Source: Caldicellulosiruptor danielii (GTDB taxonomy: Bacteria; Bacillota; Thermoanaerobacteria; Caldicellulosiruptorales; Caldicellulosiruptoraceae). From it: DNA of 64,000 nt. Where the stretch lies: contig NZ_CP139957.1 in assembly GCF_034343125.1 (NCBI RefSeq), forward strand, positions 2,724,001 through 2,788,000, in the 5' to 3' direction. Shown piece after piece: positions 16,646 through 32,884 of the stretch. The notes beneath the pieces are model-generated. The model saw nothing but the letters and a program-made list of their open reading frames with translations. It was not told the origin of the DNA and did no database searches. The position numbers and the translations under genes are program-made. Each line of letters opens with the position of its first letter. Position 1 is the stretch's first letter.

Positions 16646-19082
16646 AAAACCGTCGGGGCTTTTTTCTCACCCCGGCAAAGACGGCGGTATTGAAGGTGCA
16701 AAGCCGTTAGAAGTCCATCTTGTAAACAGTAGCATCTTAGCTGAGACTTTTGCATCAGAGAAAAATTTGCCTCTCTGTTCAACAAAATATCTTACACAGA
16801 TTGCAAAAATCACAGCCTTGCTGCACGACATCGGCAAGGCAACTTCTTTTTTTCAAACTTATCTTTTTGATAAGAAAAAAACAAAAAGCAGACTATCGCG
16901 TCACTCCCTTATCTCTGCTATTTGTGTGTGGGGGACACTGAATAGGCTTGTTGAAGAAAAGAAAATCCAAGAGGATAAAGCTTTTGAAGGCTTTACTGCG
17001 ATTTTAGCGTTTTTTGCTGCTTTAAAACATCATGGTGATTTAGAATCAGTATCAGATATGATATTTCTTAGTGATGACGACATAGAACTTTGCTATGAGC
17101 AGATTGAGAATATTGACAAAGAGAAGTTTAACACTCTTGTTTCTAACATCTCTACTTTTTGTCCTGAAATTGGTTTCTTGACGGCAGATACCTTAAGAGA
17201 ATTTGTAGACCATGCAAAAAACTCAACAAACTCTTTTAAAAAAGCTTTCAGAAAGCTTTTTGATACTGAGATGAAATTCTTTTTCATGTTAAATCTGCTA
17301 TATTCTATACTACTTGATGCAGACAAAACAGAGGCAATTTTTGGCACTTTGGTTGATATTCCTGAACTAAATCTTTCTCACACTGATGTTGACAGCTTTA
17401 GAAAAAGTGTTTTCAAACCTGAAAACTTTGAAAATTCAATAAAAGCTTTGAGAGACAGCGCTTTTGAAGAAGCAATAAATTGTGAGATTGACGAAAATAG
17501 ACGCATCTACACCCTTTGTCTTCCAACAGGACTTGGAAAAACCATTATCTCTTTTGCTTTTGCACTAAAGCTCAGAGAACTTGTTAAGGAGAGATTTGGC
17601 ACCAAGTTTAGAATAATTTACTCACTTCCTTTTTTATCTATCATTGAGCAAAATTATAACGTCATCTCACAGATTTTGAGCTTTTGCGGCTTTGAGATAA
17701 CCTCAGACATCATTTTAAAGCACCATCATTTAAGTGATATTGCCTATAAAACCAAAAACAGTATTAAAAGCAGTCAAGAGGAATTTTTCGACTTAGATGT
17801 TGCAAAACTTCTGATAGAAGGCTGGAATTCAAATATAATCGTTACAACATTTGTCCAGTTTTTGGAGAGTATTCTGACAAATAAAAACTCTAATATGAGA
17901 AAATTCCACAGAATTGCAAATTCAATAATAATTCTTGATGAGGTGCAGGCTATAAACTCAGAGTATTGGTTTTTGTGCAAGAATCTTTTTGAAAAGATGT
18001 GTAATTATCTCAACTGTTATATAATTCTTTCAACCGCTACAATGCCTTTCATTGTTGAAAGAAAAACTGCCATTGAGATTGTAAAGCCAGAGAAGTATTT
18101 TGACAAACTGTGTCGAACAGAGTTGTATTTTGACAATAGTTTTTCAAAGGTAAAACTTGAAGAGCTTGTAGAAAAATTTGAGTTCGAAAAAGGTAAGACT
18201 TACCTCTTTGTTTTGAACACGGTAAAAAGTACAAAAAAATTGTATGAACTCATAACCCAAAGATTTCCTGATTTGCAGGATAAAACTACAATTCTGACAA
18301 CTCATATAATTCCTAAAGAGAGATTGAGAAGAATTGAGCAAATCAAAAATAAGAACTACAAAATTGTTGTATCAACTCAGCTTGTTGAGGCAGGGGTTGA
18401 TGTTGACTTTGACCATGTTATAAGAGACATTGCTCCGCTTGACTCAATCATCCAGGCAGCAGGGAGAGCAAACAGAGAAGGCAAAAAAGAAAAGAGTAAA
18501 GTGACAGTTGTTGAACTTGTATCTGAAAAAGAAAAGCTTTTTGCAACAGAGGTTTACGACAGCACACTAATTGATGCAACCAAAAAGATTTTAAGTCAAT
18601 TTCAAAAGGTTGATGAAAGTAAGTTTGCAGATCTAATCTCTGAGTATTACAAAGAACTTGCAAGACGTGGCGTTATTGAAACAAGCAACGACGATAAGGG
18701 AACATCACAAAAATTTCTTGAGGCAATCTACAAGCTCCTTTACACCTCATCCAACTCTGAAACAGCTGCAATTGGAAGTTTTAAACTTATTGAAGATGAG
18801 CCTTACAAAGTAGATGTGTTTGTTGAGGCAGATGAGGAAGCAAAAATTATCTGGCAGAAATTTGTAGAAATTTGCCAGATTAAAGAACCTTTTGAAGGAA
18901 AAAAGAGGTTTTTGGAAATTCGCAAATGTTTTTACGACTACGTTATCTCTGTGCCAAAGACAGATAACATTCCAGTAAATTTTGAAGACATAATACTCTA
19001 TGTGCCAAACAGCCAGCTAAGTAGTTTTTATGATACAAAAACAGGATTTAAAACAGAGGGAGAAACTCATTTGATTTTCTAA
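16620..19082 (+). CDS. cas3: Cas3 HD nuclease-helicase
   Basis: I chose ATG 16620 because GGAGG sits at 16609-16613, giving 820 residues. The HD nuclease part shows LLHDIGKA (H69-D70). The helicase part shows PTGLGKT (Walker A, about residue 302), ILDEVQ (D440-E441), STATMP and QAAGRANREG (motif VI). Cas3 is recruited by Cascade and degrades target DNA. It is the last gene of the operon; its stop overlaps the stop of the truncated CARF gene on the other strand by 4 bases, suggesting the operon end is a rearrangement junction. No terminator is seen after it. Confidence 0.95.
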   Translation: MERTLYFSEKPSGLFSHPGKDGGIEGAKPLEVHLVNSSILAETFASEKNLPLCSTKYLTQIAKITALLHDIGKATSFFQTYLFDKKKTKSRLSRHSLISAICVWGTLNRLVEEKKIQEDKAFEGFTAILAFFAALKHHGDLESVSDMIFLSDDDIELCYEQIENIDKEKFNTLVSNISTFCPEIGFLTADTLREFVDHAKNSTNSFKKAFRKLFDTEMKFFFMLNLLYSILLDADKTEAIFGTLVDIPELNLSHTDVDSFRKSVFKPENFENSIKALRDSAFEEAINCEIDENRRIYTLCLPTGLGKTIISFAFALKLRELVKERFGTKFRIIYSLPFLSIIEQNYNVISQILSFCGFEITSDIILKHHHLSDIAYKTKNSIKSSQEEFFDLDVAKLLIEGWNSNIIVTTFVQFLESILTNKNSNMRKFHRIANSIIILDEVQAINSEYWFLCKNLFEKMCNYLNCYIILSTATMPFIVERKTAIEIVKPEKYFDKLCRTELYFDNSFSKVKLEELVEKFEFEKGKTYLFVLNTVKSTKKLYELITQRFPDLQDKTTILTTHIIPKERLRRIEQIKNKNYKIVVSTQLVEAGVDVDFDHVIRDIAPLDSIIQAAGRANREGKKEKSKVTVVELVSEKEKLFATEVYDSTLIDATKKILSQFQKVDESKFADLISEYYKELARRGVIETSNDDKGTSQKFLEAIYKLLYTSSNSETAAIGSFKLIEDEPYKVDVFVEADEEAKIIWQKFVEICQIKEPFEGKKRFLEIRKCFYDYVISVPKTDNIPVNFEDIILYVPNSQLSSFYDTKTGFKTEGETHLIF

Positions 19083-19662
19083 AATGTTAAAAATGCATTT
19101 ATACCTATACTAAGATCCAGAAGGTCTATAAATGGGGTCAAGTTCAATATAGGCTTTTTTACTTCTTTGGTTTCAAAAATACTATAATAAATTCCTAAAA
19201 TTTCGATATTCTTTACGGTTTTTAAAAAGTTAAGCATAACAATTTCAAGCATAGGCAAATATCGATATCCATGAGTTATATCAAACAAAATCTGGTCTGA
19301 TTCATCTATATGGCTGGTCACTATGTCGAATATCTGCCATATTTCAGAGTCATTAAAGCCTCGTGGTATTGTTACAGCTTCAATATCAAATTTGATAATT
19401 CCTTTTTCCTTCAGCATTTCAATCTCTTTTTTAATCTTGTATCCGAATTTTTGCCACTATCATCCCAGTTTTTAGCTCTTGCTTCATCAGTAACAAAAAT
19501 GTAACCTTTAGAGTCTTCTTCCCACGACTTACAAAGTTTTTCTAATAGTACTACCTGAGTATATCTACTTTTTTCTTCCTCAATACCAAAAGGCGTTTCT
19601 ATAATATATTCAGCAGGTTTACATTCATTTGCACCTAAAAAACTCAAAAACTTTTTTCCCAT
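19079..19662 (-). pseudogene. Truncated and frameshifted CARF protein (TM1812-like, effector domain missing)
   Basis: Two frames join at a single-base indel in an A run near 19437. The first half (start ATG 19662 behind GGGGAGGTG) has KKFLSFLG and GYIFVTDEARAKNW. The second has LFDITHGYRYLPM and TPFIDLLDLS, the CARF pattern also found in the csx1 gene at 815-2122 (DMTHAFRNIP, PFIDKL). The frame stops right after the CARF domain, so no HEPN part remains. The stop coincides with the end of cas3 on the other strand. It is most likely a remnant cut when the type I-B operon took its place. Confidence 0.7.
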
Positions 19663-19909
19663 TTTAAAAACTTTGCACCTCCCCATTAATTTATGGAATT
19701 GCATTCAATCACTTAATTCTTGGCTATTTTACTTAGATATTCTTTGCAAACATATAAAATTTAAAGAATTTGGATTATTGCTATAAATATTATACACTAA
19801 TAATTTGTCAAAAACATCAAAAACTTATAAATTGTTTGCAAAACAAAACTTTGTATTCTGAATCTATAATTTGCTTATTTATTTACAAAACTCTGTATTA
19901 TAATTTATT

Positions 19910-20574: not shown

Positions 20575-21516
20575 ATGCGCGATAGCCTTCCACCACAAGA
20601 ACATGATTCAACTTTCAAGTTTTTGTTTGAACACCCTAAGGATATTCTTTTCCTTATCAAGGATGTGATTGGCTACAGCTGGGCAAAAGACATCCAAGAA
20701 GATTCAATTGAGCTTGCAGACAAAGAGTTTGTCGGTGAAGATTTTCTACAAAGAAGAGCAGATGTTGTAGCAAAAGCAAAACTAAAAGACAGGGAAGTGT
20801 ACTTTTACATTATCATTGAGAACCAGTCAACTGTTGCAAAAGACATGCCAGAAAGACTTCTGCGATACATGATACTACTGTGGGCAAAGAAGATAAGAGA
20901 AGGGGTAGAAAAACTTCCAGCAATTATTCCCATAGTGACATACAATGGGCTTGAAAAAGAATGGGATGTTGAACAGGAGATAATCAGTGAATTTGATATT
21001 TTCAAGAATGATATATTCAGGTATGCACTTGTAAACATCTCAAAGTTAGATGCAAAAGCTTTCTTGTGTGAAGAAGATGATGTGTTGAGCCCAGTAGTGT
21101 TTTACTTGGAGCAGGTAAGGGATGATACAGAAGAGCTTGCAAGAAGGTTAAAAGAAGTAGAACCGCAGCTGAGAAAATTTAGCAGCACCAACATAGAAAG
21201 ATTTTTGATATGGGCAGGCAATGTAATTAGACCAAGGCTTACAAAGGAAGACAAAGAGGAGTTTGACAAGCTGATAGAGAGAGTAAAACAGGGGGGAGTG
21301 AGTAAGATGGGTGAGTTTGTATCAAATGTTTCAAGACTTCTTGATGAAGTCCAAATGAAAAGATTCAATGAAGGGAAAGTCGAAGGCAAAATTGAAGGGA
21401 AAGAAGAGGTAGCAAGGAAACTGATAAAGAGAGGATTTAGCGATGAAGATATTGCAGAGCTTACAGAATTGGATATAGAAAGAATAAAAAAGCTGAGGAA
21501 AGAGTTGATTAATTAA
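20575..21516 (+). CDS. rpn: Rpn/YhgA-family PD-(D/E)XK nuclease, copy 2
   Basis: The 313 residues are almost identical to copy 1, with the same D63, E82 and Q84 nuclease residues, ribosome site and extended -10 promoter (TGGTATAAT). It differs by one extra four-residue GKVE unit in the tail and a few substitutions (FLCEEDD for LLCEEED). Upstream identity begins in the array-end repeat at 20357; downstream identity ends near the stop codon, unlike copies 1 and 4. It separates array 2 from the leader of array 3. Confidence 0.9.
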   Translation: MRDSLPPQEHDSTFKFLFEHPKDILFLIKDVIGYSWAKDIQEDSIELADKEFVGEDFLQRRADVVAKAKLKDREVYFYIIIENQSTVAKDMPERLLRYMILLWAKKIREGVEKLPAIIPIVTYNGLEKEWDVEQEIISEFDIFKNDIFRYALVNISKLDAKAFLCEEDDVLSPVVFYLEQVRDDTEELARRLKEVEPQLRKFSSTNIERFLIWAGNVIRPRLTKEDKEEFDKLIERVKQGGVSKMGEFVSNVSRLLDEVQMKRFNEGKVEGKIEGKEEVARKLIKRGFSDEDIAELTELDIERIKKLRKELIN

Positions 21517-22104: not shown

Positions 22105-23129
22105 ATTTGTAGCCTGCCCTTTGGGGATTGAAACTTGCTAACGTTGCTACCTCTCTTGTAAGTGTTCTTGATTTGTAGCCTGCCCTTTGGGGATTGAAAC
22201 AGCTGCCCATCCCATGTCACATACCCTGGTGGTTGTTTTGTAGCCTGCCCTTTGGGGATTGAAACAACTTTTTGTCTTTCTGTTATAAAGCGCCAGCAAA
22301 CCTTTGTAGCCTGCCCTTTGGGGATTGAAACTTCAACATGAGCGTTTAGATTTTAGACACCCTATGGGCGATTTGTAGCCTGCCCTTTGGGGATTGAAAC
22401 GGTAGTTGATTTAGAACTAAAAGTATCAAATCCTTCTTTGTAGCCTGCCCTTTGGGGATTGAAACACATCTTGAATTTCTCTCAATTTTGTAATCAACAT
22501 CTTTGTAGCCTGCCCTTTGGGGATTGAAACAAATTATGGCAGCTATACAAACAGCTAATACAACTATATTTGTAGCCTGCCCTTTGGGGATTGAAACATT
22601 TAATTGTAAAGGCTGTAATTGACTTTGAACCAGTTTTGTAGCCTGCCCTTTGGGGATTGAAACTTAGTAGTGTCGTCTTTTCTTTCTTTTTTGATTGTAA
22701 TTTGTAGCCTGCCCTTTGGGGATTGAAACTTCTCTCCACGTGAAAATTCATACATTAATTCACATTATTTGTAGCCTGCCCTTTGGGGATTGAAACATGA
22801 ATGTGCCTATTTCGTCCTCATTTACCTTCCTATTTGTAGCCTGCCCTTTGGGGATTGAAACCCGTTAGAGTGCTTGAAGAACCCGGGAACTCCTTCAAAT
22901 TTGTAGCCTGCCCTTTGGGGATTGAAACGGGTATGTTGCAAGCAGGAAATCTCTGTACTCCCGCCAGATTTGTAGCCTGCCCTTTGGGGATTGAAATTTC
23001 TTTCTTCCGTGCTCAGTATAGAAACAATTTTTTGTTTGTAGCCTGCCCTTTGGGGATTGAAACCTCTCAAGCCTGTCCAACTGCACTGCTGTCCACATTG
23101 GTTTGTAGCCTGCCCTTTGGGGATTGATA
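22105..23129 (+). CRISPR. CRISPR array 3, about 16 repeats, CCTGCCC variant with variable first base
   Basis: Repeats start at 22105, 22171, 22236, 22302 and so on to 23034 and 23101. All read CCTGCCC where array 1 reads CCTTCCC. The first base of the repeat is A, T, C or G in different copies, so the true unit is 29 bases beginning TTTGTAGCC. The last copy (23101-23129) is degenerate (GATTGATAA) and the repeat at about 22968 ends GAAAT. It is read on the plus strand from the L1c leader. Confidence 0.96.
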
Positions 23130-23130
23130 A

Positions 23131-23187
23131 AAAAAGCCACAGGCACTATTGAGTTTGTATTTTGATTGCCTGTGGCTTTAATTTTTT
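23131..23187 (+). terminator. Bidirectional terminator between array 3 and the type III operon
   Basis: A perfect 13-bp stem, AAAGCCACAGGCA (23133-23145) and TGCCTGTGGCTTT (23167-23179), is flanked by an A run and a T run. It can stop both the plus-strand array transcript and the minus-strand operon ending at 23212. Confidence 0.85.
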
Positions 23188-23211: not shown

Positions 23212-24417
23212 TTAATTTTCTAATTCAATCAATTTATTTTTGTCCAAATCTATTACAGTTTCACCTCTTTTTATCTTATTGCAATCATCCTCATATTTGT
23301 CATGCTTGAGCCAAATCTTGTATACATATAAAATTCTGCTATTATAATCAAAATCATAAGCGCATCTAAATATAAGCTTATTACCGTTTGAAGACCCCTT
23401 ATAAATATATGGTTTATTTATTCCCCAATTTTCATTGTGCATTAGCTCTCCTCTTAAACCTTGATAATTCTTATAATCCTCAAAAAACAAACTTGCTTTC
23501 TTTATGAGTTCCATCAGCTGGTTCATAATAAATTTTTTATTCTGCTCATCTTTGTTAATTAAACTATTTACATCTTCACTTACCTTTATTGTTGTGCTAA
23601 TGTAATCCTTAAAAATAAATTGCGCAAAAGCATTTGCGCTGACAATCTCTTGCCCGTCAATCTCTACTTTTTCAAAGAAATAGGGCATTGTCTCTACAAC
23701 TTCTGTCTCATCTGCAGACAGGCTTTGATAATTTACCTCTCCTTCCTTGAGCAAATTCTTTATGAGGTCTTTGTTTTTTGCTATTAAGTCAAAGTTTATT
23801 TCAATTGGAATAGGTGGTATCACAAGCAGTTTTTGGTCTTTTTCGTACATGTATCCTGATGGATAACCAAAAAGAGCACCTGCAACATAACCCATATAAG
23901 TCATGTATTTATATCCGCCGATTGGTGCAAAAAATGTTGTCTCTTTTGTGCCTTTCAAAAGTTCATTTGCAACGACTTGCATGAAATATCCTAAGGATCT
24001 TTGCAATTTTATTTCATTTGACACATCCACATCTCCTACTTTTACTAAAAAAACTGTGGAGTCTTTAAAAATAAGCTCTATCACTTTTTTATTTATCAGT
24101 GCAGCCATAATGCCATCTGGTGTATCAGAATGTATAATTGAAACACTAATTTTTCCATCCAACAATCCTTTTTCCTTGAGGCCTTTTAGCATTGAAAATT
24201 CAGCACTGACTTGCTGAGGTTTTTCTTCAACCAATCTAACTATCACTTCATCAGTTAGCCCTTTTTCTTTACATATCTGTTCCAAAACTCTCTCTAAATT
24301 TTTGTCAGTATATAAACTTTTGTTTTTATTGAATTTAGCAAAATATTCATAAAAAACATTGCTTGAGTTAAATACCGAAATTCCTCCTGTCATAACAATG
24401 TTAGAATACTTTGGCAT
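23212..24417 (-). CDS. CARF-domain ancillary protein (APE2256-like) with RelE-like C-terminus
   Basis: With ATG 24417 (AAAGGAAAG upstream) the protein has 401 residues. The N-terminal half carries an MTGGIS start, and the segment FFAPIGGYKYMTYMGYVAGA followed by GYMYE and VIPPIPIE is the glycine-rich signature of APE2256-type CARF domains. The last 80 residues (ELMHNENWG, LIFRCAYDFDYNSRILYVYKIWLKHDKY) resemble the core and final strands of RelE/ParE ribonuclease toxins. It would then be an RNase triggered by cyclic oligoadenylate. It is the last gene of the type III operon. The RelE call is from pattern only. Confidence 0.7.
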   Translation of the reverse strand: MPKYSNIVMTGGISVFNSSNVFYEYFAKFNKNKSLYTDKNLERVLEQICKEKGLTDEVIVRLVEEKPQQVSAEFSMLKGLKEKGLLDGKISVSIIHSDTPDGIMAALINKKVIELIFKDSTVFLVKVGDVDVSNEIKLQRSLGYFMQVVANELLKGTKETTFFAPIGGYKYMTYMGYVAGALFGYPSGYMYEKDQKLLVIPPIPIEINFDLIAKNKDLIKNLLKEGEVNYQSLSADETEVVETMPYFFEKVEIDGQEIVSANAFAQFIFKDYISTTIKVSEDVNSLINKDEQNKKFIMNQLMELIKKASLFFEDYKNYQGLRGELMHNENWGINKPYIYKGSSNGNKLIFRCAYDFDYNSRILYVYKIWLKHDKYEDDCNKIKRGETVIDLDKNKLIELEN

Positions 24418-24436
24418 CAAAAACACTTTCCTTTCT

Positions 24437-24802
24437 TTATCTTTGTGTTTTTACAATCCTCTTTGTCCATGCAAACACAAAAAATAAACCATCAATATCC
24501 AACTTAGAAAAATCTGCATTTTCTAAAATAAAATTACCATTTTCTTCCTTTAATCTTAAATAACTTTCTACAAACTCTTTAAACCCTCTTTTTTTGGCAT
24601 TTCCGCCTCCTAAAACATTAGGATTTTTTGCACATATCCACAAAAGCTCTAAAAATCTTTTTAGCTGTTCCTCTTTCGAATTTTTCTCCATTTTCGCTGT
24701 AATAATAAAACTCACTATATCACTTATAAAACTTGAATTAGAAGAAACAATTTTTGTTTTAATCTTCTTTGTTATCTCCAGTAGTTCTTTTTTATCCTTC
24801 AT
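24437..24802 (-). CDS. Small helical protein of the type III operon, unknown
   Basis: The protein has 121 residues, is rich in Lys, Glu and Leu and is predicted mostly helical, with no cysteines beyond one in LLWICAKNP. I do not recognise the family. It lies 28 bases after a RAMP gene and 19 bases before the CARF-RelE gene, with a GAGGTG ribosome site, so it is clearly in the operon. Size and helicity would fit a second small subunit (Cas11-like), an ancillary subtype III-D protein, or an antitoxin-like partner for the RelE-like domain next door; none of these is shown. Confidence 0.6.
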   Translation of the reverse strand: MKDKKELLEITKKIKTKIVSSNSSFISDIVSFIITAKMEKNSKEEQLKRFLELLWICAKNPNVLGGGNAKKRGFKEFVESYLRLKEENGNFILENADFSKLDIDGLFFVFAWTKRIVKTQR

Positions 24803-24830
24803 TTTATATCAGCACCTCAGCAATTCTTTT

Positions 24831-25739
24831 TCATTTTTCAATTCGCCAAACTTCTTTTATTCTTTTTATGTTTTCTTTTACTTTATAATCTGCCTCATCT
24901 TCAAAATCTTTTGCAAGTTTAATTAATTCTTCTGGTTCACACTCTTTTACATATTGCGAAAATTTATTTACCCCTTTTACAGCGCTGATGCGAATGCTAC
25001 CCAGACAATGATTTTTCCCATACCCTATCTTCAAATCAAAGCCACTAAGACCAAGTGAAAAACACAAAAGTTTTATCTGCTCTTGACTCAAATCTGATCT
25101 AAACCAAATTTCTCCTTCAAATTTCACGCCGGGTTTTATAGCCTCAATCCAAATACCATTGTCTGGTGATGCGCTTTTACACTTGCCGTGGTTATAAATC
25201 TTATAACCTTTAAACTTGCCATTTTCATCTTTGTAATCATCACATTCATGGGGATGTGGTCTAAAAGATGGCGGAATGCAAATAAGCTCGGTTATTTGAG
25301 AAAAATCTCCTTCTCCTACAACGGCAAAATCGTGAAAGATAAGCTTGCTTTTGTACCCCGGCGCACCAAACATATCACAAACTATACATCTTCTGCCTTT
25401 ATCCTCGTGCCACTTTTTAACAGGCATCTTTTCCTTTGTTTGCTTGTCAGCTGCAACTCCCATACAGCTATACGACACCATCTCTGCAACAGTTCTTATA
25501 CATCCTTTTAAGGAACTGCCAGGAATAATGTACCTGTCATTTGATTTGATAAATGTCCTGTAAATCACACCATCTTTTTCTGAATACATTCCAGACCAAA
25601 TGTGAAGATAGCTCAAGGTTTCTATCTGCAAACGCATTTTTTTATAATTTAAAAACTCAGCCGAAAGTTTTGCTGTAGAAGAATTGTTATAGTTATCTTT
25701 TGACTCTAAAAAAGAAATAAAGCTATAGGATTTGCTCAT
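24831..25739 (-). CDS. Csm3-like RAMP (Cas7 group) of the type III effector
   Basis: The protein has 302 residues. The RAMP signature YIIPGSSLKGCIRTV marks the first helix after a KDGVIYRT segment whose Asp may be the target-RNA-cleaving residue seen in Csm3. A zinc-like CIVCDMFGAPG follows, and the C-terminal glycine-rich part reads SLGLSGFDLKIGYGKNHCLG. The first residues overlap the end of the next upstream RAMP gene by 17 bases, indicating coupling. It forms part of the crRNA-binding backbone of a type III-D-like complex. Confidence 0.85.
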   Translation of the reverse strand: MSKSYSFISFLESKDNYNNSSTAKLSAEFLNYKKMRLQIETLSYLHIWSGMYSEKDGVIYRTFIKSNDRYIIPGSSLKGCIRTVAEMVSYSCMGVAADKQTKEKMPVKKWHEDKGRRCIVCDMFGAPGYKSKLIFHDFAVVGEGDFSQITELICIPPSFRPHPHECDDYKDENGKFKGYKIYNHGKCKSASPDNGIWIEAIKPGVKFEGEIWFRSDLSQEQIKLLCFSLGLSGFDLKIGYGKNHCLGSIRISAVKGVNKFSQYVKECEPEELIKLAKDFEDEADYKVKENIKRIKEVWRIEK

Positions 25740-26631
25740 TTTCCAACTCCACCTTTTCCCACTGGTTTTTATCCAAAAAATTTATTGATTGGAGTTTCTT
25801 TTCAATCTCTTTATGCTCAAAAACTTTTTCGGCAAAAAGTGGATTTTGGGTATATCCATCTTTGGCTTTATCTTTCATCTCTCCATAGTATCTTATTTTA
25901 ATCTTTACATTCTGAACTTTCATTCTGCCAAAGCCTTTTGAAGAATACCCTCCAAACGTCAAAATTCCTTCATCAATGGCTTCAAAAATTTCAAGCAGAA
26001 GTTTTAACTGCCAGTTGAAAAAGCTAACAAGTGTTATCTTGCCTTCAAACACTCCCCAGTCAACATACTCAAAAGTGTTAAGACCTTTTTCTTTCGCCGC
26101 ACCTGAGATTCTGTCAATAGGCGTAGAGCTTCTGGACGATATCTTAAAACCTTCCTTTGCCTTTGCATCGTCAAATATCATTCTGCTTTTGAGTCTTTGT
26201 GAACCAAAAACCTTGCACGCAGGACAGCTCAGATAATAATTCCTTTTACCACTTGAAAAGCTTTTTAATTTTTCAAGTTCTTTGTCAAACTCATTTGATT
26301 CCCAATTTTTATTATTATCAGATTTTAGTTTTTTCTCAAATTCTTTTATTTTTTTCAAACACTTATTACTCTCTTGACGGGTATCCAAGATATTGCATGC
26401 CTCATCTCCCAACAACTTTTCGAAAAACGATCTGAAAACACCTTTCATTGAAGTACCGGGAATTATGGGAATCCTCTTTTCATCAAGATAACATGAGATA
26501 TACGTTCCATCAAAAGCTGTTGGGTCAAGAAGACTTGTATTCTGTTTTATATAAAGAGGACTTTGCGTAACAAGTTCAAAGTTAACTATTGCTTGATTTA
26601 AAAGTTTTTTGAACACTTTTTTTCCCTCCAT
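25723..26631 (-). CDS. Csm3-like RAMP (Cas7 group) of the type III effector
   Basis: The protein has 302 residues. The motif PIIPGTSMKGVFRSFFEKL follows a LLDPTAFDGTY segment with candidate catalytic Asp residues. CPACKVFGSQ and RSSTPIDRISGAA are typical of Csm3-type proteins, and the C-terminal GGYSSKGFGRMKV is the glycine-rich RAMP loop. A lysine-rich insertion lies near residue 110. Translation starts near GGAGGG in the 5' region. It probably occupies one backbone position along the crRNA. Confidence 0.87.
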   Translation of the reverse strand: MEGKKVFKKLLNQAIVNFELVTQSPLYIKQNTSLLDPTAFDGTYISCYLDEKRIPIIPGTSMKGVFRSFFEKLLGDEACNILDTRQESNKCLKKIKEFEKKLKSDNNKNWESNEFDKELEKLKSFSSGKRNYYLSCPACKVFGSQRLKSRMIFDDAKAKEGFKISSRSSTPIDRISGAAKEKGLNTFEYVDWGVFEGKITLVSFFNWQLKLLLEIFEAIDEGILTFGGYSSKGFGRMKVQNVKIKIRYYGEMKDKAKDGYTQNPLFAEKVFEHKEIEKKLQSINFLDKNQWEKVELENEQIL

Positions 26632-26656
26632 TTTCTATACTTTGCATCGTCGAAGA

Positions 26657-27439
26657 TTATTCAAACTGCTTCTTAAAATCTGACCACGAAAGTGATTTTA
26701 TTCCATTGAGTCCTTTTTCTAAATAATCCTTTATATTGTCTTTTGTAATTCTGTAAATATCAACTTTTTCTGTTAGCATTATTCTTCCAAGTCCGCGGGA
26801 GGTTTTTCCTCCAATTTTCAATTCTCCACTTTTCAAAACCTCTACTATTGGAATCAGAAAAGACTTTACATACTCATCTTCAAGATTTTCAAAAACCATA
26901 TAAAGGTCAAACTGGGCACCTGGCTCTATAACCTCAAAATCATACTTTACTCTATTTGCTGCCGTGCCGGTATCTCTATCAATCCCAACACCATCTCTTA
27001 CTCCAAGTTTATAAAGTTTTTTGCCGTTTTCTTCTCTTACCCTAAGGTCAGAAATATATATTTTTGAAGCTGTCTCTTGTGAACCAAAAACTTTGCAAAT
27101 ATCACAAAGAAGAGAGTAGACTTTTTTTGCATATTCATCCGGCTTTTTTGAATATTCGTCTTTTATATTTTTTATCTCGTTTTCTTTTTTCTTACAACAA
27201 GACTCTATAGTAACCCAGCAGTGTTCTTTGGGATATACCTGCTCGATAAAACTTCTTAAAACACCCTTTAAAGAACTACCAGGAATATAAGGTTCGTTAG
27301 TTGAAGCATACCTCACAATTCTATTGTCTACTTCTAACGGATTAAAGCTTGACCCTCCTGCTCCTATATGAATAGGATTTAAATTTGTAATTACACCTTT
27401 TATAATATACCTGTTTTCAAACTTATCAAACAGCAACAA
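26657..27439 (-). CDS. Csm3-like RAMP (Cas7 group) of the type III effector
   Basis: The protein has 260 residues. It starts with a short strand, then NPIHIGAGG, LEVDNRIVRY with a candidate catalytic Asp, and PYIPGSSLKGVLRSF. CDICKVFGSQ and RDGVGIDRDTGTA follow, and the glycine-rich loop is GGKTSRGLGRIML. It is closest by eye to canonical Csm3. It lies 25 bases upstream of the next RAMP gene and 46 bases after the Csm2-like gene, with AGGGAGGTATTACC as ribosome site. Confidence 0.9.
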   Translation of the reverse strand: MLLFDKFENRYIIKGVITNLNPIHIGAGGSSFNPLEVDNRIVRYASTNEPYIPGSSLKGVLRSFIEQVYPKEHCWVTIESCCKKKENEIKNIKDEYSKKPDEYAKKVYSLLCDICKVFGSQETASKIYISDLRVREENGKKLYKLGVRDGVGIDRDTGTAANRVKYDFEVIEPGAQFDLYMVFENLEDEYVKSFLIPIVEVLKSGELKIGGKTSRGLGRIMLTEKVDIYRITKDNIKDYLEKGLNGIKSLSWSDFKKQFE

Positions 27440-27485
27440 TGGTAATACCTCCCTAAATTAGTAATCGTTAAGGTATCCAATTTAC

Positions 27486-27968
27486 CTATCTTTTCCCTGC
27501 TCTTTTTTGATAATTTTGATCCTTGGTGTGAGAATTTTGTCCGTTGTTTTGCCCCTGTTCCTTATTATTTCCTTTTGAATCTTCAAGCCCATAAACTTTC
27601 CAGTAGATATAACCAAGAAATCTTGCAGAAAGTTCAATAACTTCTTTTTCACTGTCAAATGTTGGATCTTCCTTATACTTTTCATCAATTTTTTTCTTTA
27701 ACTCCTCTAATTTTTTTATAATAAACTCAGCAAAAGTCCCACAATCACCAAATGATTCATCCCAACCCGTGTTTCTCCTTGCGCCTTTATATTCCAAAAA
27801 CAATTTTACTTCATCAAAACAGCTTGCCTGCAAAATTGCTGTTGCAGTTGTGCGAATATTAGTTTTGCCAAGTTCCTCGTTTTTCTTCCAAAATTTAATA
27901 TTATTTCCAATCTCCTCAGCCCATTGGGTCAACATTTTAATTATTTCTTTTCTTGCTTCTTCTTTCAT
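27486..27968 (-). CDS. Csm2-like small subunit (Cas11 group)
   Basis: With the ATG at 27968 (7 bases after the csx10-like stop, GGTGAAG ahead) the protein has 160 residues. The first 125 are helical and the last 30 are Gln/Asn/Lys-rich and probably disordered. ELGKTNIRTT resembles the Csm2 L-x-T-x-x-R start of its helical bundle, and ARFLGYIYWKVYG resembles its C-terminal helix. Size, helicity and operon place fit the small subunit that lines the target RNA in type III complexes. No other small-subunit gene is obvious, so this is the best candidate. Confidence 0.65.
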   Translation of the reverse strand: MKEEARKEIIKMLTQWAEEIGNNIKFWKKNEELGKTNIRTTATAILQASCFDEVKLFLEYKGARRNTGWDESFGDCGTFAEFIIKKLEELKKKIDEKYKEDPTFDSEKEVIELSARFLGYIYWKVYGLEDSKGNNKEQGQNNGQNSHTKDQNYQKRAGKR

Positions 27969-27975
27969 TACTTCT

Positions 27976-29121
27976 TCACCCCTCAATTGTTTGGAATTCA
28001 TAAAATTCAAACCAACCATATCCATCTTCAACTTTTTGACCAAAACCTTTGAATTCAAGAAGCTTTTCCACAGCCTCATCAATGCTCTTTTGTGTCTTTA
28101 GTACCAATACCGTTCCAGCCTGAGCAGAGTACATAATTTGTTTTGGAGAAAAATCATTTTTCGATGTGTCAATTCCTCTGAAAAGATTTATCTGGGAAAA
28201 AATTTTATATATATCAAACTCTTGAGGAATACCAATTGCGTCTTTGATTATTTCCAAGTATTCTTGGGTTGGAATATAGCCCGTTGGTAAATTGTCCACC
28301 TTGAACAAAATATCAGATACAAAATAAAGAGCTATAAAGTTAGAATCAGCATCCTTGACAATTTCTTTGTATTTGCTCGAAAACCTTTTTGCTTTTTCTT
28401 TAGGATCAACTTTATTTTCTTCCTCTTTTCTTTCGCCTAAAGACAAGCATGCCATTCCAAAACCGCTTGACGTGTATTTTCCTATTCTTAATTGATCTAT
28501 CTTTTTAAGATCCTCTTCAGAAATTCCTTCTATAACGCCTTCAAACACAATTCCATCTGGGCAAGTTTTTATAATTGGTGCAAGAGTAAACAAACTTCCT
28601 TTGAGTGCTGTTTTTGTAAAATGGTTTATTGCAGTCTTCCCCATATACATTCGTTCAATTCCGGAATATGGTTTGCCATCCAATACAAGCCCTGCGTATT
28701 TTTCAACTCTGTTATTGCCCTCAGGGCACTTTAAACACTTTGCTTCCTTATCTTCTCTGCCGTAGAGTAGCTCAGAATAAAAACCATGTTCTTCATTGTT
28801 TTTGCAAATCATATCACAAAGTGGATTTGGCTTTGTCCCTTTGGGATAGAAAAAAGATATTTTTATTTCTTTAAAGTTTTTACAAAGGTTTATAAACTCA
28901 CACCTCTGGCACTCTTCTTTGTTTTTAAATTCAACCCAAAAGCGTTTCTCAGAACTCTCATCATAAATATCACGTTGTATCTTGCAGTTTAGCACAATGA
29001 ATTTTGCCAATGCTGCTCTGACTACGCTGCCGGGAATGTAATTGATGCTCTCTATAAAATTGGTTGCAGACTTTCTGCCACCCACCAGCACAGGACTTTT
29101 GAAATTGAGATAAACCTTCAC
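27976..29121 (-). CDS. csx10: Csx10-like RAMP (Cas5 group, type III-D)
   Basis: The protein has 381 residues. The N-terminal YIPGSVVRAALAKFI is the Csx10/Cas5-type variant of the RAMP helix motif (an R-A-x-A after PGS). Cysteine pairs CQRCEF, CDMIC and CLKCPEG suggest structural zinc. GKYTSSGFGMACL and GFGQKVEDGYGWFEF are glycine-rich loops of two RAMP domains. Csx10 holds the crRNA 5' end in type III-D complexes. It starts with GTG overlapping the stop of the upstream Csm3-like gene, so translation is coupled. Confidence 0.78.
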   Translation of the reverse strand: MKVYLNFKSPVLVGGRKSATNFIESINYIPGSVVRAALAKFIVLNCKIQRDIYDESSEKRFWVEFKNKEECQRCEFINLCKNFKEIKISFFYPKGTKPNPLCDMICKNNEEHGFYSELLYGREDKEAKCLKCPEGNNRVEKYAGLVLDGKPYSGIERMYMGKTAINHFTKTALKGSLFTLAPIIKTCPDGIVFEGVIEGISEEDLKKIDQLRIGKYTSSGFGMACLSLGERKEEENKVDPKEKAKRFSSKYKEIVKDADSNFIALYFVSDILFKVDNLPTGYIPTQEYLEIIKDAIGIPQEFDIYKIFSQINLFRGIDTSKNDFSPKQIMYSAQAGTVLVLKTQKSIDEAVEKLLEFKGFGQKVEDGYGWFEFYEFQTIEG

Positions 29122-29660
29122 CTGCCTTCAACCTCCTCAATAAAAACTTCAACATGTCCCAATCCCCTGCTCTTGCTACCCCCTATCATTTCAATGAACT
29201 TTACTGCCTGTTCAAATTTTTCTTTAACATTCTGTTTTTCAAGATCTGATGGAAGATATAAGTTGATTTTTCCACAAAATGTAGTATTCTCAACAGTCTT
29301 GTGAGAAAATAAGCTATTTAGACGTATTGCTCTTCTGAATCTATCTATTGCTGTTTGTGTTCTAATACTGAAATAATACTCTTTAGAGGGTTTTAGGTCT
29401 TCAAAAAATACAAGTGAACTTCTGTTGTTCTGCGAACCAAATAGCATACATGCTTCACAGTTGCAATTAAAAATTTTGTGTTGACAGTGATGTAAATAAA
29501 CATAGTTACTCCTGACAATTCCTTTCAAGGTTGTTGCAGGAATTATCGGCTTGCCGTCAATTCCTATTATCATCGACCTTATTATCGAGTTAGTTTCGCC
29601 GCTGGATATTATCAAAGGTGATTTTAAATAGATTTCTACTCTGTAAGTAATTTTTTTCAT
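29118..29660 (-). CDS. Short Csm3-like RAMP
   Basis: The protein has 180 residues, shorter than the other backbone RAMPs. PIIPATTLKGIVRSNY is the helix motif and GGSKSRGLGHVEV the glycine-rich loop; CNCEACMLFGSQ gives the zinc-like cysteines and RTQTAIDRF the conserved strand. Where the other Csm3-like proteins have an Asp before the helix motif, this one reads GETNSIIRS, so it may lack RNA-cleaving activity and serve as an end-of-backbone subunit. It starts 20 bases after the cas10 stop. Confidence 0.82.
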   Translation of the reverse strand: MKKITYRVEIYLKSPLIISSGETNSIIRSMIIGIDGKPIIPATTLKGIVRSNYVYLHHCQHKIFNCNCEACMLFGSQNNRSSLVFFEDLKPSKEYYFSIRTQTAIDRFRRAIRLNSLFSHKTVENTTFCGKINLYLPSDLEKQNVKEKFEQAVKFIEMIGGSKSRGLGHVEVFIEEVEGR

Positions 29661-29680
29661 ATCTTTTACTCACCTCATCC

Positions 29681-31678
29681 TCAGACAAACTCACTGAGTT
29701 TTGCTATCTCGTCCCATGGTGATATTAACTGCTCTTCTTCGTCGTCTTTCTTTTTGACAAAGCCACCTATAAATTTTGTATCCTCATCAAGCATTTCTTG
29801 AATTGCTTCCTCTACAGCGTCAATATTTTCTTCTCTTGCTTTTTGGAATATATAGAAAAGTTCAAACTCTTCTGGCAACAGAGTCTCAGCTGCTTCTTTG
29901 AAGAGGTATATTTTAGCTCTTGCAAGGTTCTCTCTAATAGTTTTAAATGCCTTAAGAACTTTTTCTACTCTTTTCACATCGCATGGGAAAATCTCTTTAC
30001 TTCCTTTCTTGCCCAAAATAGATGAACCTGTTAAAACCTCAACGTCTACACTGCCCATCTCCAATTTTTTCTTTTTCACATATTTTTTTGCACTCTTCAA
30101 CAGCCCAACTGTGATGTCATATGCCGCAGACATTGGCATAGTGCTTTTTGTTATCAATATTCCAACAGAAAGAGTAATTGTATTGTTAAATGCTGTGTCA
30201 AACTTTTCTATTATCTGCTTTGCAACCTCCAGTGCCCATTGTGCAGGAACAGCTATTAAAATATCTTCTCCGCTCAAAATGATTATCTCAAACTTTAACA
30301 AAGGCTTTCCTTTCGCTTTTTCAGATGTTTTCTCTTTATCATCTTTTTCCATTGCATCTTTTAGCGCTTCGTAAACAGCACAAACTGTTATTTTATCCAA
30401 TCTTCTGCTCAAAAACATCAGCTCAAAAACATTTCTGATGTTCATAATGACATTTCCCAAATTATTCCCATCACCGTAAATAAGGGCAATATAATCACCT
30501 ATATCTGATATACTTTTGGGCAATTCAAATTCATCTATATTCTTTCCAATAAACTTACAATATTCCTCATGGTAGAATGAACGCATACCTTTACCCTTCT
30601 TAAATTTCCAATGACAAACATCACACACATAGTATTCTTCATCAAAAACCTCAACTTTTTCCTTAGGATCTCTCAACCAGCAGGTTTGGCACAGCTTTAC
30701 ATTCCGAGGAATAACATTGGTGTGAGTTTCTTTTTGAGGTAGTGCGAGCTGAAGCACTGGCAGCTTAACAATATGCCTTGTTGTGAGCTTTTGAGCTATT
30801 TTAGTGGACAGGCGACTATAATCAAATAAAAACTCGCCAAGTTCTGCCTCCAAAAACTCAAATGCAAATTTTCCACCGGGGAGAAGCTGTGAGTACTCCT
30901 TTTCAATCTCCTCGCAAATTTCCTGACCCTTGCCTTTTGGAACAACAATAAGTGAGTTCCCACCACTACCATAAATCAAACATTCGGGTATCAGACCAGC
31001 TTTGTTCAATACCTCTCTTGTCCTCTCAATATTTGCTTCTTTTATAAGCTCGGTTGCACCTCGCATCTGTGCTAACTTATCCGCCTCAGTAATATACTCT
31101 TTTATTTTCGATATTCCACCTTTGACTACCTCTATCTTTATTTCTAATACCTTTATTATTTTTTCTTGATACTTAAATTTTTCTTTTATTTGGTTATAAT
31201 CTTGCTTTGAAAGGTGGCTATCTTTCTGCGTTTCTTTTAGAACTTCAACAATAATCTGCTTGACAATATCGTCTGAGTCAGGATTTAAAAATTTGAGATA
31301 AGAGTTTTTTCTGCTAAATGAAATGGTGCTTTTCTCAATGTTGTTCTCTTCAATAGCCTTGAGAAAATCTACCAAAACATAGATTTTTGCCGCATCAATA
31401 AGCGCCGGCAAATAAGCAATTTCTCTTTCAGTTAGGTCTTTTGAAAACACAAATCTTTTGTCAAAAATTTCTGCTTCTTCTTTCGACATATTCTTCTGTG
31501 CCAATTCTTCTAACGGTTGATTTTCTTCCATTCCTTCTACCAGTTGCTTTATTTTTAAAAGTTCTTCAGGTGATATGTAATTTCCATCTGCAGGATAGAG
31601 CTGGTCTAAATATTTTTTAGATTTTCTCTCATCATCTGAATAGAGTTGCTTTGAATTTTCTCGCGACACAATTTCCAC
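29681..31678 (-). CDS. cas10: Cas10 large subunit, HD-less, type III-D-like, altered GGDD
   Basis: The protein has 665 residues. No HD motif is seen in the first 200 residues, as in type III-D. CQTCWL and CDVCHW form a zinc finger. The first palm domain shows YGDGNNLG (from G402). The second palm shows SGED (S469-D472) where cyclase-active Cas10 has GGDD. Acidic residues are kept, so cyclic oligoadenylate synthesis may persist. Starts are GTG 31678 or GTG 31669; the second has the better-placed AGAGGTGG. It heads the RAMP operon, 113 bases after cas6. Confidence 0.88.
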   Translation of the reverse strand: MEIVSRENSKQLYSDDERKSKKYLDQLYPADGNYISPEELLKIKQLVEGMEENQPLEELAQKNMSKEEAEIFDKRFVFSKDLTEREIAYLPALIDAAKIYVLVDFLKAIEENNIEKSTISFSRKNSYLKFLNPDSDDIVKQIIVEVLKETQKDSHLSKQDYNQIKEKFKYQEKIIKVLEIKIEVVKGGISKIKEYITEADKLAQMRGATELIKEANIERTREVLNKAGLIPECLIYGSGGNSLIVVPKGKGQEICEEIEKEYSQLLPGGKFAFEFLEAELGEFLFDYSRLSTKIAQKLTTRHIVKLPVLQLALPQKETHTNVIPRNVKLCQTCWLRDPKEKVEVFDEEYYVCDVCHWKFKKGKGMRSFYHEEYCKFIGKNIDEFELPKSISDIGDYIALIYGDGNNLGNVIMNIRNVFELMFLSRRLDKITVCAVYEALKDAMEKDDKEKTSEKAKGKPLLKFEIIILSGEDILIAVPAQWALEVAKQIIEKFDTAFNNTITLSVGILITKSTMPMSAAYDITVGLLKSAKKYVKKKKLEMGSVDVEVLTGSSILGKKGSKEIFPCDVKRVEKVLKAFKTIRENLARAKIYLFKEAAETLLPEEFELFYIFQKAREENIDAVEEAIQEMLDEDTKFIGGFVKKKDDEEEQLISPWDEIAKLSEFV

Positions 31679-31791
31679 CTCTTTCCTTTTAAGGTGAGCT
31701 GAAAACTCTTTTTTAAATGAATTTTAATGTCGAATTTTGTCGAAGTTTGTCAATAAAGATTTTATTTAGAAATGTTTAGTAGTATTATATT

Positions 31792-32547
31792 TCATTTTTC
31801 ATAAGATATCAATACTCTCTCGGCAGGTGGAGGGATGACTTCTATACATCCAAAACCAAGAGCATTTTTGACGCCCAGCCCACAGTTATATGCAATTTCA
31901 ATTATTTCTGGTATAGATTTTATTTTCAACAAAAGGTCATAGCCGATGTAGAGTTCATTTTTTATGTGCAATATTTTTCTTTTTATCTTCTCATTATTTA
32001 CAATCTGGATTTCTATCTTTTCTGGCAAGACACTTATATTTCTGAATGCTTTTGCTTTTGATATTAGGTTCTTCTTTATACCTTCAACAAAATATGCAGC
32101 AAATTCCGAACAGTTATGTTCAATTCCTCGAATTTCTTTTATAATGATAGGTGAAAGTGTCCTGCAAACAATCTGCTTTCTTTGTGGCTGATCTAACACT
32201 GAAATTGACCTTAATTCAAAAATAGCTTCGCCCATCTTCAAACATTTTTCTTTTAGAATTCCTTTTAAAAAGTAATAAGCAAAATTATCATCTATTGTAG
32301 AAACTATCAAGTAGCTATTACCCGGCAAAACTCTTATTTCTTTATTTGCAAAGCTATACTTTTCAAAAAACAATCGTGAAAAAGTCCAGGGTTTGTATAT
32401 TTTTCTGTTCAAAAGATACGCACCATTTTCAATGTATCGTAGATACTCAGAATCAAGAAGCATATTTATTGAACGTGCAAGTTCCATACAGTAATCTACT
32501 TTTATTCTCGCTTCTTTTTCATTTGTGAGTTTTAACTTAAACCTCAT
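31792..32547 (-). CDS. cas6: Cas6 crRNA-processing endoribonuclease
   Basis: The protein has 251 residues when started at ATG 32547, which has a better ribosome-site distance (AGGAG) than the ATG 9 bases upstream. Features are a RAMP first strand (RFKLKL), the TLSPIII segment between the two ferredoxin domains, and the C-terminal CGLGVKNALGFG glycine-rich loop that grips the repeat RNA. Cas6 cuts within repeats to leave the ATTGAAAC handle. It is the only intact Cas6 in the window; the type I-B operon lacks one, so this enzyme likely serves both systems. Confidence 0.92.
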   Translation of the reverse strand: MRFKLKLTNEKEARIKVDYCMELARSINMLLDSEYLRYIENGAYLLNRKIYKPWTFSRLFFEKYSFANKEIRVLPGNSYLIVSTIDDNFAYYFLKGILKEKCLKMGEAIFELRSISVLDQPQRKQIVCRTLSPIIIKEIRGIEHNCSEFAAYFVEGIKKNLISKAKAFRNISVLPEKIEIQIVNNEKIKRKILHIKNELYIGYDLLLKIKSIPEIIEIAYNCGLGVKNALGFGCIEVIPPPAERVLISYEK

Positions 32548-32884
32548 TTTTTTCATTCTCCTAATCTCTTAAGTTAAAATTGAAGCAAAAACTCTAAGAA
32601 GATGAAAAGGAATAGCAAACCACAGTTTTATTAAAGCATAAAAGCATAAACTTTTAAAGACTGGTATCGCTGATCCTCAAAGTGATATTTCCTTTCCTGA
32701 ACACTTTACTGTTTTCTGCTTTCTTGCACTGAAAATGCCCAAGCATTGTATATTTATAAGCCCAAAAATGATGTATTCTTATTTTAAGCAAATTTGGTTA
32801 CATTGATCTTGGGTGGCACAATTTTCAGTGTTAATTTATACGCACCTTCAAGCGTGATGTATATTAGCTGATTTGATTATCTTG

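What the first reader, a model, noticed from the sequence alone, without database searches (positions are those of the whole stretch)
23212..24417. CARF protein with a RelE-like C-terminus
The APE2256-like CARF signature is followed by a C-terminal segment with the strand pattern of RelE/ParE toxins (FRCAYDFDYNSRILYVYKIW). CARF-RelE fusions have been noted in genome surveys, but few are characterised; a ribosome-dependent mRNase under cyclic oligoadenylate control would be a distinct defence output.
Basis: inference. Interest (0 to 1): 0.6.

Follow-up and report, generated by a model that had tools for sequence, protein, structure and literature searches.

The report
CARF–RelE CRISPR effector, Cami1 kind
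A CRISPR alarm-controlled enzyme that most likely stops protein synthesis in an infected cell by cutting messenger RNA on the ribosome; it is a new example of an already described effector kind (Cami1), so it is sound but not new in principle.

Summary
The gene is real: a 401-codon minus-strand ORF, 23212-24417, is the last gene of a type III-D CRISPR operon and is under purifying selection against its intact congeneric ortholog (dN/dS 0.15). It matches the PADLOC CARF7–CARF_RelE model over its full length (E 1.5e-150). An AlphaFold2 model (pLDDT 89) shows CARF, winged helix and a separate beta-alpha-alpha-beta-beta-beta-alpha C-terminal domain. The best PDB match of the whole model is Cami1 (E 4e-15). 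For the C-terminal domain alone (pLDDT 92.5) the 28 best PDB matches are all RelE-superfamily toxins or Cami1, each individually weak (E 0.02-0.6). CARF ligand residues S14/E73/K170 and a C-terminal H/K/R/H/Y set are conserved. What remains is a testable oddity: the neighbouring Cas10 has SGED instead of GGDD, and a canonical III-A Cas10 lies about 30 kb away. Activity, activator and ribosome dependence were not tested.

The parts
23212..24417 (-). CARF-wHTH-RelE effector gene, 401 aa (Cami1-like, CARF7-RelE group)
   Evidence: ORF; PADLOC PDLC01935 E 1.5e-150 over 6-403 of the 404-aa GTG form; AF2 model and Foldseek top hit Cami1; dN/dS 0.148 against the 75-76% identical ortholog
23800..24417 (-). 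CARF sensor domain, residues 1-206; conserved S14, E73, G167-G168-Y-K170
   Evidence: PF09651/TIGR02619; S14/E73/K170 invariant in 16 aligned sequences including Synechocystis Sll7062; S and K align with residues mutated in the Sis0811 ring-nuclease entries
23605..23799 (-). linker and winged-helix region, residues about 207-271
   Evidence: AF2 secondary structure; Foldseek alignment over about 280 columns with the CARF-wHTH ring nucleases SSO1393 and Sis0811
23212..23604 (-). RelE-like domain, residues 272-401; conserved H327, K340, R351, W369, H372, Y375, E376
   Evidence: own AF2 model pLDDT 92.5, pTM 0.87; 28 best PDB matches are RelE-superfamily toxins and Cami1; conservation
24437..32556 (-). 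type III-D operon upstream: Csm2-like small subunit, four Csm3/Cas7-like RAMPs, Csx10/Cas5, Cas10, Cas6, one unidentified ORF; ends 19 bp before the CARF-RelE start
   Evidence: PADLOC and NCBIfam matches, ORF map
29681..31678 (-). Cas10 of the III-D complex: no HD motif; palm motif YGDGNN kept, GGDD replaced by SGED
   Evidence: PF22335; alignment with four homologs that have GGDD
22106..23131 (+). CRISPR array of 16 repeats downstream of the CARF-RelE stop codon
   Evidence: repeat count, sequence

Best explanation
The gene encodes a Cami1-type ancillary effector of type III CRISPR defence. A dimer binds a cyclic oligoadenylate, most likely cA4, between its CARF domains. Binding is passed through the winged helix and activates the C-terminal RelE-like domains, which act in the A site of translating ribosomes and cut mRNA, halting translation and growth of the infected cell. 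The CARF domain probably also cleaves the messenger slowly, so the response limits itself. Shown here: gene, operon position, domain architecture, predicted folds, conserved residues, purifying selection. Inferred from homologs: dimer, cA4, ribosome-dependent cleavage, self-limitation.
For: Full-length match to CARF7-CARF_RelE. Nearest solved relatives by sequence are Cami1 8phb/8phj, and by fold Cami1 over up to 432 columns. The C-terminal domain matches only RelE-superfamily toxins and Cami1 in its best 28 hits. Alignment A2 matches a second CARF-RelE group through the C-terminal domain (hhalign E 3.9e-22). The ring-nuclease/cOA residues named for Sll7062 (S12, E70, K167) are conserved as S14, E73, K170. 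Type III association: III-D operon in the window, a Cas10 with GGDD in nine of 13 homolog loci from other genomes and near the gene in two of three congeneric relatives. No antitoxin gene beside it. dN/dS about 0.15 overall and 0.11 in the RelE part, although dS there is near saturation. Cami1 is described as cA4-activated with A-site mRNA cleavage and as having ring-nuclease activity.
Against: Individual Foldseek E-values for the C-terminal domain are weak (0.017 at best) and no sequence profile of stand-alone RelE detects it. The relation to Cami1 in the C-terminal domain is by fold only, about 15% identity. The relative Sll7062 showed ring-nuclease but no RNase activity in vitro on total RNA without ribosomes. 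The gene is broken in two congeneric genomes. The adjacent Cas10 has an unlisted cyclase motif.
Confidence: 0.85

Rival explanations
1. The protein is now mainly a ring nuclease: the CARF domain destroys cyclic oligoadenylates made by the several type III systems of the cell, and the RelE-like domain is weak or inactive.
For: CARF-wHTH matches ring nucleases SSO1393/Sis0811; S, E and K conserved; Sll7062, same architecture and same operon place, is a ring nuclease without detected RNase activity on RNA alone.
Against: The RelE-like domain is under purifying selection and keeps H327, K340, R351, H372 and Y375 across bacteria. The genome already has a Csx20 beside its III-A locus, a family confirmed as a ring nuclease. 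Cami1 shows that both activities can coexist.
Confidence: 0.08
2. The effector works for another locus: the III-D Cas10 beside it cannot make the messenger (SGED), and the signal comes in trans from the III-A Cas10. (Concerns the signal source only; compatible with the best explanation.)
For: Four Cas10 homologs have GGDD where this one has SGED; SGED is absent from the variant list of PMC11229360; an intact III-A locus with an HD and GGDD Cas10 lies at the left edge of the window; in sibling genomes G005 and G001 the CARF-RelE gene lies near III-A genes, not III-D.
Against: The single changes GGED and SGDD are both listed among motifs of loci with effectors, so SGED may well be active; the palm-1 GDGNN motif is kept; the 19-bp spacing puts the effector in the III-D operon.
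Confidence: 0.25
3. The C-terminal part is a HEPN ribonuclease as in Csm6, signalled by R-x4-H in GLRGELMH.
For: R-G-E-L-M-H has the HEPN spacing; some Csm6 profiles match the CARF part.
Against: The R of that motif occurs in only 2 of 16 homologs (K in the closest one), and the domain is a mixed alpha/beta fold, not the all-helical HEPN; no HEPN protein is among the best C-domain matches.
Confidence: 0.01
4. CARF plus a plain winged helix: a Csa3-like transcription regulator (the refutation named by the first reader).
For: A winged-helix region is present, and Csa3 appears among the structure hits (2wte, rank 15).
Against: A separate 130-residue domain follows the winged helix and is predicted to fold as RelE.
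Confidence: 0.02

Closest known systems
Cami1 (CRISPR-associated mRNA interferase 1; PDB 8phb, 8phj; Mogila et al. 2023, doi 10.1126/science.adj2107)
   Same: CARF, winged helix and RelE in this order, 406 versus 401 residues; best sequence and fold hit; GG(F/Y)K and TxGxS CARF motifs; HDxY near the end of both (DHDEY in Cami1, KHDKY here)
   Different: about 15% identity overall, so a remote member; sequence similarity reaches significance only in CARF-wHTH; stalk and ribosome contacts could not be compared
Synechocystis Sll7062 (SyCsm6), CARF7-RelE (PMC9676260)
   Same: same architecture class, last gene of a III-D operon, a csx2/TIGR02221 gene nearby, S/E/K ring-nuclease residues
   Different: 17% identity; best PADLOC model is PDLC01934, the window protein's is PDLC01935
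CARF-wHTH ring nucleases SSO1393 / Sis0811
   Same: CARF and winged helix, conserved S and K
   Different: no RelE domain
RelE/HigB/YoeB toxins
   Same: fold of the C-terminal domain; charged residue set at similar places in the topology (inference)
   Different: here fused to a sensor, no antitoxin gene; not detectable by sequence

Membership tests
Cami1 / CARF7-RelE effectors | APE2256-type CARF domain | tested here: met
   PF09651 43.5 bits (cut-off 24.8), TIGR02619 38.0 bits (cut-off 37.45)
Cami1 / CARF7-RelE effectors | winged helix between CARF and effector domain | tested here: met
   AF2 model and alignment with CARF-wHTH ring nucleases and Cami1
Cami1 / CARF7-RelE effectors | C-terminal RelE-family fold | tested here: met
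   model; one search hits all RelE superfamily in the first 28, single E-values weak; CARF_RelE profile
Cami1 / CARF7-RelE effectors | type III CRISPR locus with a cyclase Cas10 | tested here: inconclusive
   type III locus met; the neighbouring Cas10 motif is SGED, of unknown activity, while a GGDD Cas10 is elsewhere in the genome
Cami1 / CARF7-RelE effectors | activation by cA4 | not testable with these tools
   needs biochemistry
Cami1 / CARF7-RelE effectors | ribosome-dependent mRNA cleavage at the A site, capture by the ribosomal stalk | not testable with these tools
   needs biochemistry or cryo-EM
Cami1 / CARF7-RelE effectors | ring-nuclease residues S/E/K in CARF | tested here: met
   S14, E73, K170 invariant in 16 aligned sequences including Sll7062
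Csm6/Csx1 (CARF-HEPN) | C-terminal HEPN domain with conserved R-x4-6-H | tested here: not met
   R in 2 of 16 homologs; alpha/beta fold
stand-alone RelBE toxin-antitoxin | adjacent antitoxin gene | tested here: not met
   neighbours are a cas gene and a CRISPR array

The most novel reading that the evidence does not exclude
The III-D complex beside this gene has neither an HD nuclease nor a working cyclase, and its CARF-RelE effector is switched on in trans by cA4 from the III-A Cas10 in the same genome, a case of signalling between CRISPR loci; or the altered palm motif (SGED) makes a different messenger to which this remote Cami1 group is tuned.
Probability: 0.25. Interest if true: 0.5.

Novelty: new member of a known kind. 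Interest (0 to 1): 0.22.

Why it matters
It extends the Cami1 kind to a remote branch (about 15% identity). The effector beside a Cas10 with a doubly changed cyclase motif, in a genome with a canonical III-A Cas10, is a convenient place to test signalling between type III loci, which has been proposed from statistics (PMC11229360). It does not by itself establish a new defence output.

Tried and rejected
Pfam and PDB sequence searches with the C-terminal domain alone gave no RelE hit, so the fold rests on structure prediction and on the CARF_RelE profile. HEPN was considered because of R-x4-H in GLRGELMH and rejected (not conserved, wrong fold). Plain winged helix rejected. A first scan of genome contigs with the single protein found nothing; the alignment query found 14 loci. 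tblastn against phages found nothing and against plasmids only two remote cyanobacterial hits, used as context. Cami1 could not be aligned by sequence through its RelE domain because the HMMER matches end after the winged helix. The Science 2023 paper itself is not held; its content is taken from papers that cite it and from general knowledge (CARF-wHTH-RelE architecture).

Full report
Observation. The minus-strand ORF 23212-24417 (ATG; 401 aa; a GTG start at 24426 would give 404) is intact. The start codon lies 19 bp from the stop of a Csm2-like gene, and an array of 16 CRISPR repeats lies downstream of the stop codon at 22106-23131. The ORF carries the APE2256 CARF domain above curated cut-offs (PF09651, TIGR02619).

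Domain test. PADLOC's CARF7–CARF_RelE model matches the whole protein with E 1.5e-150. I gathered 15 homologs (27-76% identity), predicted the structure (mean pLDDT 89, pTM 0.75), and compared it with the PDB. The four best hits are the chains of Cami1 (E 4e-15 to 4e-13, up to 432 columns), followed by the ring nucleases SSO1393 and Sis0811 over CARF and winged helix. A separate prediction of residues 272-401 gave pLDDT 92.5 and pTM 0.87 with order beta-alpha-alpha-beta-beta-beta-alpha. The 28 best PDB matches of that domain are RelE, HigB, YoeB and similar toxins (one is a PfiAT toxin-antitoxin complex) or Cami1 chains, among them RelE on the ribosome with target TM 0.61-0.62. None of these E-values is below 0.01, and sequence searches alone do not find RelE; the consistency of the list and the full-length profile make the case.

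Residues (ATG numbering). In the CARF domain S14, E73 and K170 are invariant in 16 aligned sequences that include Synechocystis Sll7062, and correspond to S12, E70 and K167 described there for ring-nuclease activity and ligand binding (PMC9676260). S and K also align with the residues mutated in the Sis0811 entries (S12, K169). In the C-terminal domain H327, K340, R351, W369, H372, Y375 and E376 are conserved in at least 14 of 16 homologs. The second CARF-RelE group keeps H, K, R, Y, H, Y in the same order, and hhalign aligns the two groups with E 3.9e-22 down to this region. The assignment of these residues to catalysis is inference from RelE topology.

Selection and distribution. Against the 75-76% identical ortholog of a congeneric genome dN/dS is 0.148 overall (CARF 0.14, winged helix 0.17, RelE 0.11; dS in the last is near saturation). 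Among the 12 genomes of the genus examined, two carry an intact gene, two carry broken copies (one with a damaged 5' part, one with stops and a frameshift), and eight lack it. Close relatives by the family model are few in the phylum: 24 of 398 genomes match at E 1e-3, four below 1e-70.

Locus. Upstream are III-D genes (Csm2-like, Csm3/Cas7-like, Csx10, Cas10, Cas6). A Cas10 with GGDD is nearby in nine of the 13 homolog loci newly read from other genomes, and a III-A Cas10 with GGDD lies within about 10-12 kb in two of three congeneric relatives, where the immediate neighbours differ from those in the window. So the effector looks like a plug-in rather than a fixed III-D part (inference). The window's own III-D Cas10 keeps the palm-1 motif YGDGNN but has SGED in place of GGDD and no HD motif, while its four closest homologs found have GGDD. 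A survey lists GGED and SGDD, but not SGED, among motifs of loci with effectors (PMC11229360). The same genome has a III-A locus (Cas10 with HD and GGDD, Csx1, Csx20) reaching into the left edge of the window and another Cas10 with AGDE. Which of them triggers this effector cannot be told from sequence.

Mechanism. [quoted passage not shown] credited with ring-nuclease activity in PMC12409355), the protein most likely senses cA4 made on target recognition and stops translation, with slow self-limitation. Domain architecture, fold and residue conservation are supported here; activator, ribosome dependence and cleavage are inferred.

Novelty. CARF-RelE proteins are a named, profiled and characterised group: Cami1 in 135 of 1113 type III loci, and Sll7062, also the last gene of a III-D operon. 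This is a remote new member of a known kind, not a new defence output. The remaining point of interest is the mismatch with the neighbouring Cas10.

Noticed in passing
29681-31678 (-): III-D Cas10 with SGED in place of GGDD and no HD motif, while its closest homologs have GGDD; cyclase activity uncertain.
   Followed up: partly
19079-19704 (-): A TIGR02221/CARF2 CARF-HEPN (Csx1-like) gene in two pieces in different frames, with the HEPN part missing; a decayed second effector near the same arrays.
   Followed up: partly
L004/L010 and L005/L008 (congeneric genomes G001, G008): Orthologs of the CARF-RelE gene are broken (damaged 5' part; stops plus frameshift), suggesting repeated loss of the effector in the genus.
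   Followed up: partly
L053:7418-8818, L054:7320-8711, L055:10442-11842: In the relatives the CARF-RelE gene sits beside an ATPase-like gene (the L053 copy matches PADLOC candidate PDC-S27), absent at this place in the window.
   Followed up: no
27486-28082 (-): Unidentified ORF inside the III-D operon, overlapping the Csx10 gene in its long form; no Pfam or NCBIfam family above cut-off.
   Followed up: no
20575-21516 (+): YhgA-like (Transposase_31) gene between two CRISPR arrays; a similar-looking gene lies near the CARF-RelE gene in three relatives.
   Followed up: no
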